Shown: piece after piece, positions 5,354-26,060 of the stretch
Layout: every line of letters starts with the position of its first letter
How positions within the stretch are numbered: the stretch's first letter is position 1
IMG/VR virus record: IMGVR_UViG_3300042874_000217
Coordinates: 1 to 26,731 of that record
Length of the DNA: 26,731 nucleotides
Source: a virus
Strand: one strand, 5' to 3'
The notes under the pieces: model-generated
The model's input: only the letters and a program-made list of their open reading frames with translations
What the model was told of the DNA's origin: nothing
Database searches by the model: none
Made by a program: the position numbers and the translations under genes

Positions 5354-7642
5354 TCAATCCTCGATAAAAGTTTCAAGTAAAGACGGTTCTGATAGTTCGG
5401 AAAGATTTTTAACAGCTACATTAAAATATGATTCTTTTAACTCAGAGCCGACAAAACGCCTTTTCATTCTTAAAGAGCACCATCCTTCAGAACCAATTCC
5501 TGCAAAAGGAGAATAAACAAGATCACCTGGATTCGTCCAAAGATCCAAGCATCTCTCAATAACGTCTAATTGTAATGGGCAAATGTGCTTCTCGTCTTTG
5601 CCTTCCCTAGCAATTTTGTAATTCAGAGTCCTTGTCTGACGGATATCGAACCAAACAGGAGAAGCATATCGTTGCCAAACATGATGAGAATACTTGTTCA
5701 CTGAATGATTATCATTTTTATCAAAAGCCGGTTCATCCATTTCTCCGATATATTCTTCGAATCCTCTTCCTTTTGCAACGGGCTCTGAATTAATTCCAGG
5801 CTTTCTCATCGTAATAACATAATCCGGAAGACCTTGACCGCACCTTGAAGAATCCTTAGAAATTTGTTTGTGTTGAAGATTTAATGCCTTTGTTCTTACT
5901 GCTTGGATTAAAGGGTCCTTCCATATACAAACTTCTGAATGAAATATAAAACCAGCTTTTTGAAATATTCTGATTAGATCACCTCGGAGATCTTTAATTC
6001 CAATATATCCATCTTTGTATATAACAGCCGGAAGATTCATGACATGAAAAGAAAGAAGACGACCGGGCATCAAAGATCGATACAATCCTGAAACAAGAAA
6101 ATCAAAATGTTTAAAAAATTCATCTTCATTTTTACAATTACCCATGTCTCTTGTTGAGTTAGAGTATGTAAAAAGAGAAGAAAAAGGAGGAGAAAAGAGC
6201 ATGTAATGAATAGAATTTTCTTCGAATCGTTTAACAGTCTCTATACAATCCTCGTTGTAAAGAACCCAGGAATCATCAGATTTACTTACTTCTTTTTTCG
6301 GTATATAATCATTACGTTCTCGTGTCGCTTGTTTGATTTCAACCTTTGAAATTTCAGAAACATTTTTTGTCATGTTAGTAACCATCTCCGTGAATTGTTT
6401 TTCTTTTCTCTTGATATTCTTGACCACGTTTCCTTCAAGCTCATGTGTTATTATATGGACGTTTACTATTTCTGTTTGGCCGAAACGATAACAACGACGA
6501 ACAGCTTGATAAAGGGCTTCGAAAGAATCCGAAAGACCGATAAAAATAATATTATGACAATTCTGCCAGTTCATTCCCCAGCCAGCAATCTTGGGTTTTG
6601 AACATAATGCTTTATGCTTTCCTAAAGTAAAACCTAGCATTCTGTTTATTTTATCTTCGTCAGAATCAGAACCGGTTACTTCTTGAACTTCTTTAATCTC
6701 CTTCGAAATTCTCTGAGACTCTTCGTTCATTTCGCACCAAATTAGCCACTGTTCATCAGAGTTTTCAACAAGTTCTTTTGCTATTTTGATCTTATCTGAA
6801 AGAGAGGTCTTTCTTATATCTCTTCTTTCTTCAAGAGTATTAGCGGCAACAGGAAAAAGAGTACCAGCAAGAACATCAGATGCAGGAATCACATGAGAAA
6901 TATAATTAATTCCTGGTAAAACAAATCCTTTATCCTCGTAACCGATATCTGACGGAAACTGAATCATTACTGCCCATGAACATATCCACTGCCAGAATTC
7001 ATTCTCGGCGTGTTTCTTTAGTCTCCATGTTCCGGTATTCGCTGTATCATTGATGAAAAAAGTAGAAAGCATTTCCAATCTAGTGCAGATTCCGAGAAAT
7101 TCAGCTTGATTTCCTATCTCTTCATAATCATTAGGTGCAGGAGTAGCAGAACAAGAAAGCTTATAAGGAACTATTGCCCAGCTTTCGCACATATCTGTCT
7201 TGAATTTTCCTGTGAATGATTTCATTATACCGGATTCATCCACGACAATTCCCGAGAAAGCCGAAGGATCGAACTTATGAACTTTTTCGTAATTTGTTAT
7301 ATTAATCCCAGGTTTTATATCATCCATTGAAGAAGCAATGTTTACGGCGTAACCGAATTTTGAACCCTCTTGTCTAGTTTGCTTTGATACTGCCAAGGGA
7401 GCAAAAATGAGAACGTTTCCGCCCGTGAAAATATGAACCTGTTTTGCGAATTCAAGTTGCTGGATCGTTTTTCCTAATCCGCATCCTTCAAACAATGCTG
7501 ATCTTCCTTTTCTGCATGACCAATTTACTATATCTTGCTGCCAATCATAAAGCAGAGGATTTATGTCTTTTGCTTTAAATCCGTGATCTTTGTAAATAAT
7601 TTCTTTTGATGAAAGAAATTTCTGATAATCCTCTTGATTCAT
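5354..7642 (-). CDS. SNF2-like helicase / DNA methyltransferase fusion
   Basis: A 762-aa two-domain protein. N-terminal SF2/SNF2 ATPase: Walker A EGCGLGKT (52-59), motif II VVDESG (133-138), motif III SCSATPAPN (163-171), motif VI QAVRRCYRFGQ (379-389). C-terminal DNA amino-methyltransferase from about 455: catalytic motif IV SPPF (484-487) comes before the AdoMet-binding motif YSPFAGIGSEGW (about 715), the order of class beta enzymes. SPPF fits N4-cytosine or N6-adenine methylation. Phage helicase-methylase fusions such as P1 DarB are known and protect phage DNA from host restriction; that role is inferred here. There is no nuclease domain, so it is not a complete restriction enzyme. ATG 7642 follows a CAGGAG site; a promoter lies at 7698-7726. 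The HD and polymerase genes follow. Confidence 0.93.
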   Translation of the reverse strand: MNQEDYQKFLSSKEIIYKDHGFKAKDINPLLYDWQQDIVNWSCRKGRSALFEGCGLGKTIQQLEFAKQVHIFTGGNVLIFAPLAVSKQTRQEGSKFGYAVNIASSMDDIKPGINITNYEKVHKFDPSAFSGIVVDESGIMKSFTGKFKTDMCESWAIVPYKLSCSATPAPNDYEEIGNQAEFLGICTRLEMLSTFFINDTANTGTWRLKKHAENEFWQWICSWAVMIQFPSDIGYEDKGFVLPGINYISHVIPASDVLAGTLFPVAANTLEERRDIRKTSLSDKIKIAKELVENSDEQWLIWCEMNEESQRISKEIKEVQEVTGSDSDEDKINRMLGFTLGKHKALCSKPKIAGWGMNWQNCHNIIFIGLSDSFEALYQAVRRCYRFGQTEIVNVHIITHELEGNVVKNIKRKEKQFTEMVTNMTKNVSEISKVEIKQATRERNDYIPKKEVSKSDDSWVLYNEDCIETVKRFEENSIHYMLFSPPFSSLFTYSNSTRDMGNCKNEDEFFKHFDFLVSGLYRSLMPGRLLSFHVMNLPAVIYKDGYIGIKDLRGDLIRIFQKAGFIFHSEVCIWKDPLIQAVRTKALNLQHKQISKDSSRCGQGLPDYVITMRKPGINSEPVAKGRGFEEYIGEMDEPAFDKNDNHSVNKYSHHVWQRYASPVWFDIRQTRTLNYKIAREGKDEKHICPLQLDVIERCLDLWTNPGDLVYSPFAGIGSEGWCSLRMKRRFVGSELKESYFNVAVKNLSELSEPSLLETFIED

Positions 7643-11398: not shown

Positions 11399-11896
11399 TC
11401 AGGTGTCAAATTCCCAACCATCTAATGAATTTAAACTCACATCAGGCGAGAACCAATCAACTTTAAAATCCAAAAAGTCTGGGAAGTCTTCGGCAAAATC
11501 TGAAAAACAAAATTGCTCCCCTCCTGGCATCCAGAAATCCTCATACAAATAAAGTTGGAGCATTTCAATTGCCCAAATTTGTCTTGCGGATATATTAATT
11601 CCTTTCATTCCATTCATCATTTCTTCAATTATAAAATCATATTGTGCTTGATCTAATAAAGCAACAATTTGAATATCGCCCGCAACAAATCTCATAAGAG
11701 GACCGCTATAATTACAATCAGTCCCTAAATCTTTCGAAAGGGTTTTTGATATTTCTTCAATATCCGGATGTACCCATTTTTCACGAAAATTATTTTTAAA
11801 AATTATTAACGGTTCTACAAATTCAATTGATTCAATTGATTCAATTGATTCAATTGATTCAATTGATTTAATTGATTTAATTGATTTAATTGACAT
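11399..11896 (-). CDS. Hypothetical protein, 165 aa, with N-terminal SIK/SIE repeats
   Basis: The first 25 residues are a tripeptide repeat (MSIKSIKSIKSIE...), encoded by a 9-nt tandem repeat. The rest is an acidic globular-looking domain with many aromatics (CFSDFAEDFPDFLDFKVDWF near the end). Because the repeat unit is a multiple of 3, gain or loss of units would lengthen or shorten the N-terminus without breaking the frame. GGGAG lies upstream of the ATG. The body is not a family I recognise; the start could lie after the repeat only if a non-ATG codon were used. Confidence 0.65.
   Translation of the reverse strand: MSIKSIKSIKSIESIESIESIESIEFVEPLIIFKNNFREKWVHPDIEEISKTLSKDLGTDCNYSGPLMRFVAGDIQIVALLDQAQYDFIIEEMMNGMKGINISARQIWAIEMLQLYLYEDFWMPGGEQFCFSDFAEDFPDFLDFKVDWFSPDVSLNSLDGWEFDT
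11824..11892 (-). repeat. 9-nt tandem repeat (TCAATTGAT type) in coding sequence
   Basis: About seven to eight near-perfect copies of a 9-bp unit. Five are TCAATTGAT and the last three (nearest the gene start) carry T for C (TTAATTGAT), giving SIE versus SIK. The unit is itself nearly palindromic (CAATTG). Not a CRISPR: there are no spacers. Confidence 0.9.
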
Positions 11897-23062: not shown

Positions 23063-24004
23063 TCAAATACTCTTTGAAATAACTTTAAACTCGAATTTTT
23101 CAGCTTTATAAATGTTGAATCTTTCCGCGAAATGAAGCAATGCATAATTTTGTTTCAGGTTTCCCTTTCTTGTCTTGTATGACAAATCATCAACAACATC
23201 ATACCAAACAACACCGTCTTTGTTTTCATTCTTTCTAAGGCCACGGCCTATAGCCTGGAGGATCTTTATCTTGCTTTTATAAGGAGCAGCTGAAACAACG
23301 TTATGGATGTTCCGAATATTCATCCCGGTCGCACAGGTTCCATATGAGGCTACCAAGATAACATTATCATTCACCTCCATTATTCCTCGGGTTTCTTCTC
23401 TTATATCTGCCTCAGTCTCACCGGAGATATAAAGGATTGTTTTTCCTAATTTATGCTTTTCATTCATTTCTTTCATCTTATTATACAAAACTTTTCCGTG
23501 GCGGTCAACAAAATTAAACAAAACAAGTGAATTATTTTTTAAGGAAAGAATTAATCCGATAAGATTGTTCATCCTGCTTTTGTGCGAAATGATATAATCA
23601 ATCTCGGTCTGATAACCGTTTCCTCCATTTCTCTTCTTTGCATTAATGACCTTTGCTAAGTTAACGGACTCTTCTTCAGGGTATTTGAATATAACACACT
23701 TAACGAGCAACTGGGTTATTATTCCCATGTCCATTAGTTCTTTTGTTTCTATTACTCTTTTTTCTGCTCCAAAATGTCCTAGGATAACAAGTTGATGACA
23801 TTTAGCGTCTTGTAACGTCCCAGTGAATCCGTAGCGGATATGAGCATTTACCGATGATTCCATTATCTTTGACATTTGGCTAGCTGCGGCCAAATGACAA
23901 TTTGAAACAACAACCCCGTTTGCCACATAATTGTGATTTTTTTTGATATGAAGATTATACACGGCATTCGGTTTTTCTATTTTTTTTATCGATTTTATGA
24001 ACAT
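23063..24004 (-). CDS. uvsW: UvsW helicase C-terminal half with C-intein
   Basis: The second half of a fractured uvsW. Residues 1-35 (MFIKSIKKIEKPNAVYNLHI...VVVSN) are a C-intein. The extein begins at Cys36 with CHLAAASQMSK, which continues the T4 UvsW DECHLATGKS box. Following helicase motifs are YGFTGTL (motif III), IVASYGTCATGMNIRN-type motif V (here ILVASYGTCATG) and QAIGRGLRKNENK (motif VI). 278 extein residues. It starts at ATG 24004 because AAGGAG lies 10 nt upstream, inside the end of the endonuclease gene, which it overlaps by 50 nt; a start 45 nt further up has no such site. After trans-splicing with the N half it would give a UvsW of about 528 aa (T4: 503), a helicase that remodels branched DNA and R-loops. 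Confidence 0.93.
   Translation of the reverse strand: MFIKSIKKIEKPNAVYNLHIKKNHNYVANGVVVSNCHLAAASQMSKIMESSVNAHIRYGFTGTLQDAKCHQLVILGHFGAEKRVIETKELMDMGIITQLLVKCVIFKYPEEESVNLAKVINAKKRNGGNGYQTEIDYIISHKSRMNNLIGLILSLKNNSLVLFNFVDRHGKVLYNKMKEMNEKHKLGKTILYISGETEADIREETRGIMEVNDNVILVASYGTCATGMNIRNIHNVVSAAPYKSKIKILQAIGRGLRKNENKDGVVWYDVVDDLSYKTRKGNLKQNYALLHFAERFNIYKAEKFEFKVISKSI
23480..23508 (-). promoter_or_regulatory. Possible intragenic promoter in uvsW C half
   Basis: Minus strand TTGACC, 17-nt spacer, TATAAT within uvsW coding sequence, about 620 nt upstream of gp55. The match is good, but the bases also encode a helicase segment (VDRHGKVLYNK), so it may be coincidence. Confidence 0.3.
23900..24004 (-). 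other. C-intein (35 aa) of split UvsW intein
   Basis: Contains block F (VYNLHIKKNHNYVANG) and block G (VVVSN followed by Cys). The terminal Asn and the +1 Cys are the residues needed for cleavage and splicing. The residue before Asn is Ser rather than His, as in DnaE-type split inteins. Length matches known split C-inteins (35-40 aa). Confidence 0.92.
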
Positions 24005-24956
24005 ATCTACCAAACTCCTTGTATTTTTTATTTTTGAACTCTTCGTCATAATTTAACGAAGATATTCTTTCACGATTTTCTAAAAACCACATTTCATTCA
24101 CTAAAACGAAAGTGTATCCGTTCTGTTCGCACCACTTTTCTGCTGCTAAAAATTTAGATTTTGCTTTTTTATAAAGAGTTAGAGGCTTTATCTCTATTAA
24201 TTTTTTATTAACATGATCAACGAAATCAACTATATAAATATGTGATTTATTGTCTTTTTCTATATATTTTATTCGTATCGTTTCATATTCCAAAGAATAA
24301 TCATTTTCACATAAAAGATAATATAATAATTCCCAAGAAGATCTAAATTTTTTATTATCATAAAAATATTTTTTTGCATGTGTCAATCTATTATTTGTAT
24401 TTGGGGTGAAAGATCCATCATAAATCTTTCCCTTCATCGCTTCTGATTGTTTTTTCTTATGATCGTCTGAATGATGTTTACCAAACATAGGATTTCCTGC
24501 GCCCATTCTATCTTCAGAAAACTTTTTCATTTTTTCATTATTATTTTTATTCAATCCTTTTGTTTTATTTTTAACTCTTTCATCTTCTTCAACTGTCAAT
24601 CCTTTATTCCAAGGTTTCTTTCCCTTTGGATACCCTTCTTTTTTTGACTTTTCATGAAAAGATTGAGCTCCAATAATTGCCACTTCTTTTTTTATATTTT
24701 GTTTTGCTTTTTTTACTATATTTTCGTCATTGCTTAATAATTCGTTTAAGTATTTTTTTGTTATTGGACCACCGTTTATTACCGACAACATTTCGCTACT
24801 TTTGAGTTTTCTTCCGTTAGAAAGAACATACAATCCTGATTCGTTTCTTACTACAAATATAGATGTTAAATTTAATAAAATGCCATTGTATTTTTGTATT
24901 GTTTTCAAAGATTTCTTTTCATAAATCTTTTTAGAATGTTCAGCGGTTCGTTTCAT
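23955..24956 (-). CDS. Free-standing homing endonuclease between split-intein halves
   Basis: 333 aa, starting at ATG 24956 with AAAGGA 9 nt upstream (a TTG three codons earlier is less likely). Basic, with NUMOD3-like DNA-binding repeats (GKKPWNKGLT, about 112; GAGNPMFGKHHSDDHKKKQSEA, about 155-176). A C-terminal nuclease domain follows (about 200-300): FRSSWELLYYLL, IYIVDFVD and LIEIKP, an E...D...ExK pattern of the PD-(D/E)XK/Vsr-like superfamily used by the endonucleases found in fractured phage genes. It would cut intein-less uvsW and so spread the inserted cassette. The last 50 nt overlap the C-intein gene and contain its ribosome site. More AT-rich than its neighbours, as expected for a mobile gene. 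Confidence 0.88.
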   Translation of the reverse strand: MKRTAEHSKKIYEKKSLKTIQKYNGILLNLTSIFVVRNESGLYVLSNGRKLKSSEMLSVINGGPITKKYLNELLSNDENIVKKAKQNIKKEVAIIGAQSFHEKSKKEGYPKGKKPWNKGLTVEEDERVKNKTKGLNKNNNEKMKKFSEDRMGAGNPMFGKHHSDDHKKKQSEAMKGKIYDGSFTPNTNNRLTHAKKYFYDNKKFRSSWELLYYLLCENDYSLEYETIRIKYIEKDNKSHIYIVDFVDHVNKKLIEIKPLTLYKKAKSKFLAAEKWCEQNGYTFVLVNEMWFLENRERISSLNYDEEFKNKKYKEFGRYVHKIDKKNRKTECRV

Positions 24957-25007
24957 ATGATTCAATCCTTTATTTTTATAGCATACGGTTAATGAACTTA
25001 TGTTTCT

Positions 25008-26060
25008 TTATATACTATTTATACAATCAAGGATTTCATCGTTTGTATTTAATTCGTCCGCTCTTACATATCCTCTTTTTGTTAAAATTTTATGATTTCC
25101 AGTTATTTTTAAAATATTTCCATTTTCAAATTCAATCTCATACATATCATCATTTTTTGACATTTCTAAATTTTTATATACATCAACAACTTCATCCTCT
25201 TCAAATTTATTGTCATTAATATTATAGCTGATTATTTTTTCTCCTATACAAATATCTGATATTTTTTTATGACCTGCCGCGGTTTTTATAATAGTGTCTC
25301 CATCTAAACACTCATCCGCTATAACTATGTTGAATTGTTCAAAATAAGAAGGTTTCATGGTCTGCATTGATTGCCAGGTGGAAATGATAATACTTTTTTC
25401 TGTGTCTTTTTCTTGACCTGAGTATATCTTATGACAGTTCGCTTCAACGTTAAAAGAATTCTCGGATGAATAATCCTCGAAGTCTGAATACATCTGAAGA
25501 ACCAATGAAACTGTTGGAACGATCAGAAGAACTTTTATCCCATCTTCCTGATTCTCATTGAGGAACCATCTAAGGATTGAATAAATGATCAAAGATTTGC
25601 CAGAGGACGTAGGTGAAGAAACGGTAACCCGCTTGTGTTTGATACAATGATAAATCGCTTCCTTCTGGTGAGGATGATGATCAATCTTTTGACCATGAGC
25701 ATGGACGTTAAGATCTTTCAGGAATGATTCAATTAAAGGAGGAGTTACTTCTGTTTCTGGGATTGGAGTCTCCAAGAGATATTCTTTGACATTGTATTTC
25801 CTCTCTTTAGCGAATGCTTTGAGATTAGAAAGGAGTCCTGCCGGAAGTGACTGGTTCATCAAGTTCAGGAGACGTTTCTTACCATCCCATTTCTTCGCCT
25901 TGAAAGCTGGCATGAATTGATAACCAGGAACTGGGAACGTAAAATGCTCATGGACTTCCATAAGAATGGATCTTTCGGCTATCAGCTGAATATAAGAAGC
26001 GTTTAGCGTCACATAATAGATTTCATCAGGTTCTAAGTTCTCAAACGGATTCTCGTCCAA
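25008..26060 (-). CDS. uvsW: UvsW helicase N-terminal half with N-intein
   Basis: The first half of a fractured uvsW, 350 aa. Residues 1-250 are helicase: the N-terminal double-strand-binding region with FKAKKWDGKKRLLN (T4: RFRYGNWDGRIRLLD), Walker A SSPTSSGKS (148-156), motif Ia LIVPTVSLVLQM and IISTWQSM, ending at IVIADE, the first two residues of the DECH box. At residue 251 the sequence changes to CLDGDTIIKT, an N-intein that runs 100 aa to the stop. The start is TTG 26060 with AAAGGAGAG upstream, overlapping the radical-SAM gene by 20 nt. Alone it lacks motifs II-VI and should have no helicase activity. Confidence 0.93.
   Translation of the reverse strand: MDENPFENLEPDEIYYVTLNASYIQLIAERSILMEVHEHFTFPVPGYQFMPAFKAKKWDGKKRLLNLMNQSLPAGLLSNLKAFAKERKYNVKEYLLETPIPETEVTPPLIESFLKDLNVHAHGQKIDHHPHQKEAIYHCIKHKRVTVSSPTSSGKSLIIYSILRWFLNENQEDGIKVLLIVPTVSLVLQMYSDFEDYSSENSFNVEANCHKIYSGQEKDTEKSIIISTWQSMQTMKPSYFEQFNIVIADECLDGDTIIKTAAGHKKISDICIGEKIISYNINDNKFEEDEVVDVYKNLEMSKNDDMYEIEFENGNILKITGNHKILTKRGYVRADELNTNDEILDCINSI
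25011..25310 (-). other. N-intein (100 aa) of split UvsW intein
   Basis: Block A CLDGDTIIKT carries the nucleophilic Cys1. Block B has the TxxH motif in LKITGNHKILTKRGYVRADEL. The 100-residue length is typical of a split Hint N part with no endonuclease insert. Insertion point: between Glu and Cys of the DECH Walker B box. Confidence 0.93.
25016..25023 (-). promoter_or_regulatory. Candidate T4-type late promoter ahead of homing endonuclease
   Basis: An exact TATAAATA on the minus strand at the last codons of the N-intein, 60 nt upstream of the endonuclease ATG. T4 homing endonucleases such as I-TevI use such late promoters, and this phage encodes gp55 and gp45 to read them. In DNA this AT-rich a few exact matches are expected by chance. 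Confidence 0.4.

What the first reader, a model, noticed from the sequence alone, without database searches (positions are those of the whole stretch)
23955..24956. Endonuclease of the fractured gene: NUMOD3-type repeats plus ExK nuclease, overlapping the C-intein gene
The gene ends 50 nt inside the C-intein coding sequence, and its codons K-E-F-G-R-Y form the AAGGAG ribosome site and spacer of that gene. The mobile gene therefore supplies expression of the second helicase half, so losing the endonuclease could silence uvsW. This would lock the parasite in place.
Basis: partly seen in the sequence, partly recalled or inferred. Interest (0 to 1): 0.65.

Follow-up and report, generated by a model that had tools for sequence, protein, structure and literature searches.

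The report
Homing nuclease inside a split helicase
A phage DNA-repair helicase gene is cut in two by a mobile element (a split intein plus a DNA-cutting enzyme gene); the tail of the enzyme gene also carries the start signal for the second half of the helicase, yet relatives show that the enzyme can still be lost as long as that tail is kept.

Summary
On the minus strand a uvsW-like helicase is split at its DE|CH motif by a split intein. Between the halves lies a 333-aa homing endonuclease with NUMOD3 and a TnsA-type PD-(D/E)XK nuclease, not Vsr/EDxHD. It ends 50 nt inside the C-half gene and carries that gene's AAGGAG. The layout is general: 99 distinct inteins were collected, mostly at this DECH site. 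In 53 of 55 clusters the HEG stop lies inside the C-half gene. 33 of 50 clusters have a Shine-Dalgarno-like site in the HEG codons just before the C-half ATG, against 6.3±2.1 under synonymous recoding. The element homes as one unit: N-intein, HEG and C-intein are 96-100% identical between helicases only 70-78% identical.

The 'lock' is not supported. The HEG has been deleted about 8 times while the gene stayed split, and in 3 further cases the halves are joined again. Nearly all deletions spare the last 14-237 nt of the HEG with the C-half start; one pair differs by a clean 622-bp deletion. Fractured genes are already known (Dassa 2009). The new parts are the nuclease type, this host gene, the embedded start signal under selection, and the loss and re-fusion series.

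The parts
25311..26060 (-). N-extein of the uvsW-like helicase (250 aa, TTG start with AAGGAG, ends ...IADE of the DECH motif)
   Evidence: Pfam UvsW_N, ResIII, DEAD; phrog_16259; alignment with S16/PM2
25008..25310 (-). N-intein (Cys1, TGNH block B), ends the N-half gene
   Evidence: Pfam Intein_splicing 7.4e-9; own HMM over 90+ relatives
24966..24970 (-). AAGGA, Shine-Dalgarno-like site of the endonuclease gene, 9 nt before its ATG
   Evidence: sequence scan
23955..24956 (-). free-standing homing endonuclease gene, 333 aa
   Evidence: ORF; phrog_22417 4e-38; AF2 model mean pLDDT 83
24444..24527 (-). NUMOD3 DNA-binding motif, residues 144-171
   Evidence: Pfam NUMOD3 6.9e-6, in 30 of 46 relatives
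24087..24368 (-). PD-(D/E)XK nuclease domain, TnsA-like; E209, D244, E255-x-K257
   Evidence: Pfam TnsA_N 2.5e-8, 32 of 46 relatives; triad conservation; fold matches
24015..24020 (-). AAGGAG inside the endonuclease gene, Shine-Dalgarno site of the C-half gene
   Evidence: conserved placement and synonymous constraint in relatives
23955..24004 (-). 50-nt overlap of endonuclease gene end and C-half gene start
   Evidence: overlap in 53 of 55 clusters
23900..24004 (-). C-intein, 35 aa (MFIKSIKK...VVVSN)
   Evidence: Pfam Intein_splicing 8.5e-6; alignment with S16/PM2
23063..23899 (-). C-extein of the helicase, starts Cys-His of DECH
   Evidence: Pfam Helicase_C; phrog_9690 1.3e-72; joined protein matches an unbroken helicase

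Best explanation
This is a mobile 'fractured gene' element. A split intein interrupts the helicase at its DECH motif, and a free-standing NUMOD3 + TnsA-type PD-(D/E)XK nuclease gene sits between the intein halves. Inferred mechanism: during mixed infection the nuclease cuts intein-free uvsW alleles near the DE|CH codons, and recombination copies N-intein, HEG and C-intein across together. The two helicase polypeptides are joined again by trans-splicing. Because the HEG sits where the C half must start, the C half's translation start (Shine-Dalgarno site and ATG) lies inside the HEG's 3' end, and selection keeps it there. The nuclease is dispensable to the host gene. It is lost by internal deletions that spare the last tens of nucleotides (gene stays split), or that restore one reading frame so that the tail becomes an intein linker (gene contiguous again). 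Shown here: anatomy, conserved layout, synonymous constraint, transfer blocks, losses. Inferred: cleavage site, trans-splicing, actual use of the Shine-Dalgarno site.
For: Families and residues. Spliced helicase. Same layout in S16, SEA1 and PM2. Overlap in 53 of 55 clusters; Shine-Dalgarno-like site in 33 of 50 against 6.3±2.1 with synonymous recoding, 0 of 2000 as high. It holds in 17 clusters at 50% protein identity, 8.8 against 1.8±1.0. Homing blocks: L151/L142, L050/L051, L016/L020 and L141/L155 have N-intein + HEG + C-intein 96-100% identical while exteins are 70-78%. HEG under purifying selection (dN/dS 0.12-0.28 in the pairs with measurable dS; ratios from near-identical pairs are not informative). 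HEG losses.
Against: No cleavage, splicing or translation was measured. 17 of 50 clusters have no recognisable Shine-Dalgarno site, so coupling or another signal may start the C half there. L008 has no overlap (HEG ends 75 nt before the ATG). The window itself has no near-identical relative, so its own mobility is inferred from the family. S16, PM2 and four other loci carry Arg for the catalytic Lys.
Confidence: 0.85

Rival explanations
1. The lock: HEG and C-half expression are so tied that any loss of the HEG silences the helicase, so the parasite cannot be purged.
For: C-half start lies inside the HEG in nearly all relatives; the element sits in a conserved helicase motif.
Against: HEG-less alleles with intact halves and splicing residues in about 8 split lineages and 3 re-fused ones. 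L106/L107 differ from L151 (flanks 99.4-100%) by one 622-bp deletion. Other genes or other HEG families occupy the same gap.
Confidence: 0.05
2. Ordinary tight gene packing: the overlap and internal Shine-Dalgarno site carry no special meaning, as phages pack genes this way.
For: 12 of 36 genes in the window have their Shine-Dalgarno site inside the upstream gene.
Against: It explains the layout but not why HEG-deleted alleles keep the tail, nor the convergent codon solutions (R-K AGGAAA, K-A AAGGC, I-G ATAGGA, L-E TTGGAG, K-E AAGGAG). It is compatible with the best explanation rather than a full rival.
Confidence: 0.1
3. Translational coupling: the C half is started mainly by ribosomes that finish the HEG just downstream and re-initiate, not by its own Shine-Dalgarno site.
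For: HEG stop is 4-50 nt past the C-half ATG in nearly all relatives; 17 of 50 clusters lack a Shine-Dalgarno site. T4 uses coupling elsewhere, and coupling is proposed for its free-standing HEGs (PMC2988022).
Against: Shine-Dalgarno enrichment over the synonymous null. In HEG-less L129, L101 and L132 no long HEG is translated into the start.
Confidence: 0.3
4. The cis (contiguous) inteins are the ancestral state and the HEG split them, rather than being re-fused descendants.
For: HEG insertion into an intein is the usual direction proposed for fractured genes (own knowledge of Dassa 2009).
Against: L137, L162 and L115 each nest beside HEG-bearing split relatives; L137's linker reads NTARKIKTLYETN in the HEG frame, the HEG C-terminal motif, and L162 keeps the tail with its ATG decayed to ATA.
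Confidence: 0.15

Closest known systems
Fractured genes with split inteins (Dassa et al. 2009, doi 10.1093/nar/gkp095; text not held, known from memory and citations)
   Same: Conserved phage enzyme gene broken by a split intein with a free-standing endonuclease gene between the halves
   Different: To my memory the HEG family described there is Vsr-related; here it is TnsA-type PD-(D/E)XK with NUMOD3. I recall its abstract noting gene control elements brought in with the endonuclease gene, so the general idea of imported expression signals may not be new. The HEG-less and re-fused series is not in any paper I could read.
Fractured uvsW of Salmonella phage S16/SEA1 and Proteus phage PM2 (GenBank)
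   Same: Same split site, same gene order, HEG end overlapping the C-half start by 38 nt, homologous nuclease (phrog_22417)
   Different: About 40% identical only; weaker AGGA site; catalytic Lys replaced by Arg; HEG annotated as hypothetical protein
Fractured terminase gp17 of T4-like phages (HY03, Thanatos-2, phiS)
   Same: Same nuclease family; C-half gene starts inside the nuclease ORF with GGAGG or GAGG in its codons
   Different: Different host gene and atypically placed split; in phiS and Thanatos-2 the nuclease is fused to a short N-intein
T4 free-standing homing endonucleases (seg, mob, Hef)
   Same: Intronless homing in T4-like phages; ORFs often overlap neighbours (PMC2988022)
   Different: GIY-YIG or HNH nucleases in T4; not placed inside a split intein
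I-Bth0305I / EDxHD family
   Same: Phage homing endonucleases with NUMODs and a restriction-like fold
   Different: EDxHD motif not found; Foldseek hit to 3r3p weak (E 0.67)

Membership tests
Fractured gene with split intein | Host enzyme in two ORFs that together match an unbroken homologue | tested here: met
   528-aa joined protein, 39% identity, E 8e-129 to BUCT-ZZ01 helicase
Fractured gene with split intein | N-intein and C-intein with splicing residues (Cys1, TxxH, terminal Asn, Cys+1) | tested here: met
   Pfam Intein_splicing on both; residues listed; penultimate residue is Ser, not His
Fractured gene with split intein | Trans-splicing activity | not testable with these tools
   needs co-expression
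Fractured gene with split intein | Free-standing endonuclease gene between the halves | tested here: met
PD-(D/E)XK (TnsA-like) nuclease | Catalytic E...D...ExK on restriction-like fold | tested here: met
   149/149, 149/149, 149/149, 143/149; TnsA_N Pfam; weak TnsA fold match, prob 0.92-0.97 but E about 0.1
EDxHD / Vsr-like homing endonuclease (I-Bth0305I) | EDxHD motif and Vsr-type domain | tested here: not met
   no such Pfam hit; ExK in place; structural match only E 0.67
NUMOD3 homing endonuclease | NUMOD3 motif coupled to nuclease | tested here: met
   one motif, 26.3 bits against cut-off 20.4
Homing endonuclease | Spreads itself and its intein into empty alleles | tested here: met
   comparatively, in four near-identical element pairs in diverged genes; not for the window's own copy
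Homing endonuclease | Site-specific cleavage | not testable with these tools
   needs enzyme assay

The most novel reading that the evidence does not exclude
Fractured genes run a reversible life cycle: homing of intein halves plus HEG as one cassette that brings its own start signal for the second half; then HEG deletion that must spare that signal, leaving a HEG-less split intein, or re-fusion into a contiguous gene in which the fossil HEG tail is the intein linker. Split inteins without an endonuclease, and some contiguous mini-inteins, would then be products of this cycle.
Probability: 0.55. Interest if true: 0.65.

Novelty: new variant of a known kind. Interest (0 to 1): 0.5.

Why it matters
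It makes the origin and fate of split inteins testable by comparison: the same site carries empty, split with HEG, split without HEG, and re-fused alleles. It shows that a selfish gene can take over an essential-type gene's start signal without becoming indispensable, because only its last few codons are needed. It also gives a large set of related natural split inteins for tool development and a TnsA-type homing nuclease family to assay.

Tried and rejected
Single-protein scans of viral contigs with the window's HEG (none) and C half (one) were too narrow; alignment-based scans worked. A PDB sequence search gave only chance matches to viral fusion glycoproteins, and a profile search nothing firm. 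The ATG at 24049 was rejected as C-half start (no Shine-Dalgarno site, no homologue starts there). Vsr/EDxHD was rejected. The lock was rejected as a general rule. That deletions never remove the tail was considered as proof of constraint but not used as such: only 14-30 nt separate tail from start, so chance would give the same with so few events. L095 and L143 were left out of the loss count because their branches are long and no HEG tail is recognisable; L115 is counted on tree position only, as it keeps no tail. Dassa 2009 could not be read.

Full report
What is there. On the minus strand, 26060-23063 holds three genes. The first (26060-25008) is the N-terminal half of a uvsW-like helicase ending in an N-intein; the last (24004-23063) is a C-intein followed by the rest of the helicase. 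The break lies inside the DECH motif (ADE|C...N|CHLA). Joining the exteins gives a 528-aa protein that aligns over its length with an unbroken helicase of Synechococcus phage BUCT-ZZ01 (39%). Between them lies the reported ORF, ATG 24956 to stop 23955, 333 aa. It has one Pfam NUMOD3 and a TnsA-like PD-(D/E)XK domain. The AlphaFold model (mean pLDDT 83) matches phage TnsA-type and head-completion nucleases by fold and TnsA weakly in the PDB. E209, D244 and E255 are invariant in 149 relatives; K257 is Lys in 143 and Arg in 6, among them S16, PM2 and SEA1.

The overlap. The HEG stop is 50 nt inside the C-half gene, whose ATG (24004) is preceded at 10 nt by AAGGAG (24015-24020), codons K-E of the HEG. 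Within the window this is not odd: 33 of 36 genes have a Shine-Dalgarno-like site and 12 have it inside the upstream gene, including the N-half itself. Across relatives it is systematic. Scans of viral contigs with alignments of the nuclease and of both helicase halves, plus GenBank phages and one genome scan, gave 99 distinct intein arrangements, most at this DECH site: 81 split with HEG, 14 split without a nuclease of this family, 4 contiguous. Among 55 clusters at 90% identity, 53 have the HEG stop 4-50 nt inside the C-half gene. The Lak megaphage copy fits too when TAG is read as Gln (11-nt overlap). In 33 of 50 overlapping clusters at 80% identity a Shine-Dalgarno tetramer or longer sits 4-12 nt before the ATG, against 6.3±2.1 when the HEG codons are replaced by synonyms at the family's own usage (0 of 2000 reach 33). 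Grouping at 50% protein identity leaves 17 clusters with 8.8 against 1.8±1.0. The site is built from different codons in different lineages (AGG AAA, AAG GCA, ATA GGA, TTG GAG, AAG GAG), so it is selected as DNA or RNA. The same holds in terminase gp17 (GGAGG in HY03) and phoH (AAAGGA in Campylobacter phage CPt10) fractured by relatives of this nuclease, and with an unrelated DUF559-type HEG in L092 (AAGGAGGT).

Mobility. In four pairs (L151/L142, L050/L051, L016/L020, L141/L155) N-intein, HEG and C-intein are 96-100% identical (96.2% for the C-intein of L016/L020, otherwise 99.6-100%), while the helicase parts on either side are 70-78% identical; identity drops within tens of nucleotides of the intein borders. 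Synonymous divergence is 0-0.012 in those HEGs against 0.7 or more, or saturated, in the helicase halves. That is the footprint of homing of the whole cassette. In the pairs with enough change to measure, dN/dS of the HEG is 0.12-0.28, so it is kept under purifying selection.

The lock. If losing the HEG silenced the helicase, HEG-less alleles should not persist. They do. L106 and L107, from two metagenomes, equal L151 with one 622-bp deletion (3-bp microhomology) that leaves the last 237 nt before the C-half start. L129, L132, L101, L130, L135, L121 and L169 lost most or nearly all of the HEG; in L130 and L135 the N-half now stops four bases into the C-half gene, over its ATG. L137 and L162 are contiguous inteins in which the HEG tail survives as linker: L137 still reads NTARKIKTLYETN in the old HEG frame, and L162 has let the ATG decay to ATA. 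L115 is contiguous without a visible tail. On the tree the HEG label needs 14 changes, at least 12 forced by well-supported branches; HEG-less and contiguous alleles are scattered among HEG-bearing ones. All keep Cys1, a TxNH block, Asn and Cys+1 with full-length exteins. All HEG-less split alleles of this kind keep the ATG; three of four contiguous ones have lost it. The numbers are small, but the direction fits a tail that is needed only while the gene is split. So the HEG supplies the signal, and the signal, not the HEG, is what must stay.

Limits. No function was measured. The window's own element has no near-identical relative, so its mobility is inferred from the family. One third of clusters lack a Shine-Dalgarno site, so translational coupling may matter. 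The contig is a 26.7-kb fragment. The founding paper on fractured genes was not readable here, so novelty against it rests on memory.

Noticed in passing
L145, L149, L134, L140 (between the halves): Split helicase with 1.2-1.4 kb of ordinary small phage genes and no endonuclease between N and C halves.
   Followed up: partly
L092 and L093 (between the halves): Endonucleases of other kinds at a comparable place: DUF559 + NUMOD3 in L092, a GIY-YIG-looking ORF without a Pfam hit in L093; both ORFs end about 10 nt inside the C-half gene.
   Followed up: partly
L179-L258: The intein-free helicases inspected have DEVH or DEAH at the split site, while intein carriers have DECH, so the intein's Cys+1 seems to travel with the element.
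   Followed up: partly
L007:2254-4462: Lak megaphage copy reads open only with TAG as Gln; with that code the HEG overlaps the C-half start by 11 nt.
   Followed up: yes
L173, L174: Fractured helicase with the same nuclease on 173-191 kb contigs binned as Methanobrevibacter from goat gut; possibly misbinned phage.
   Followed up: no
L176:1813-2935: phoH HEG of Campylobacter phage CP21 is broken into two ORFs, intact in CPt10; the C-half start signal is kept.
   Followed up: partly
window 23900-23905: Penultimate C-intein residue is Ser (VVVSN|C) rather than the usual His; Ser, Ala or Glu in most relatives, His in S16/PM2.
   Followed up: no
window 11399-11896: ORF beginning with a run of SIKSIKSIESIESIE repeats.
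   Followed up: no
window 5354-7642: 762-aa ORF whose translation looks like a helicase-type ATPase followed by a DNA methyltransferase; not tested.
   Followed up: no
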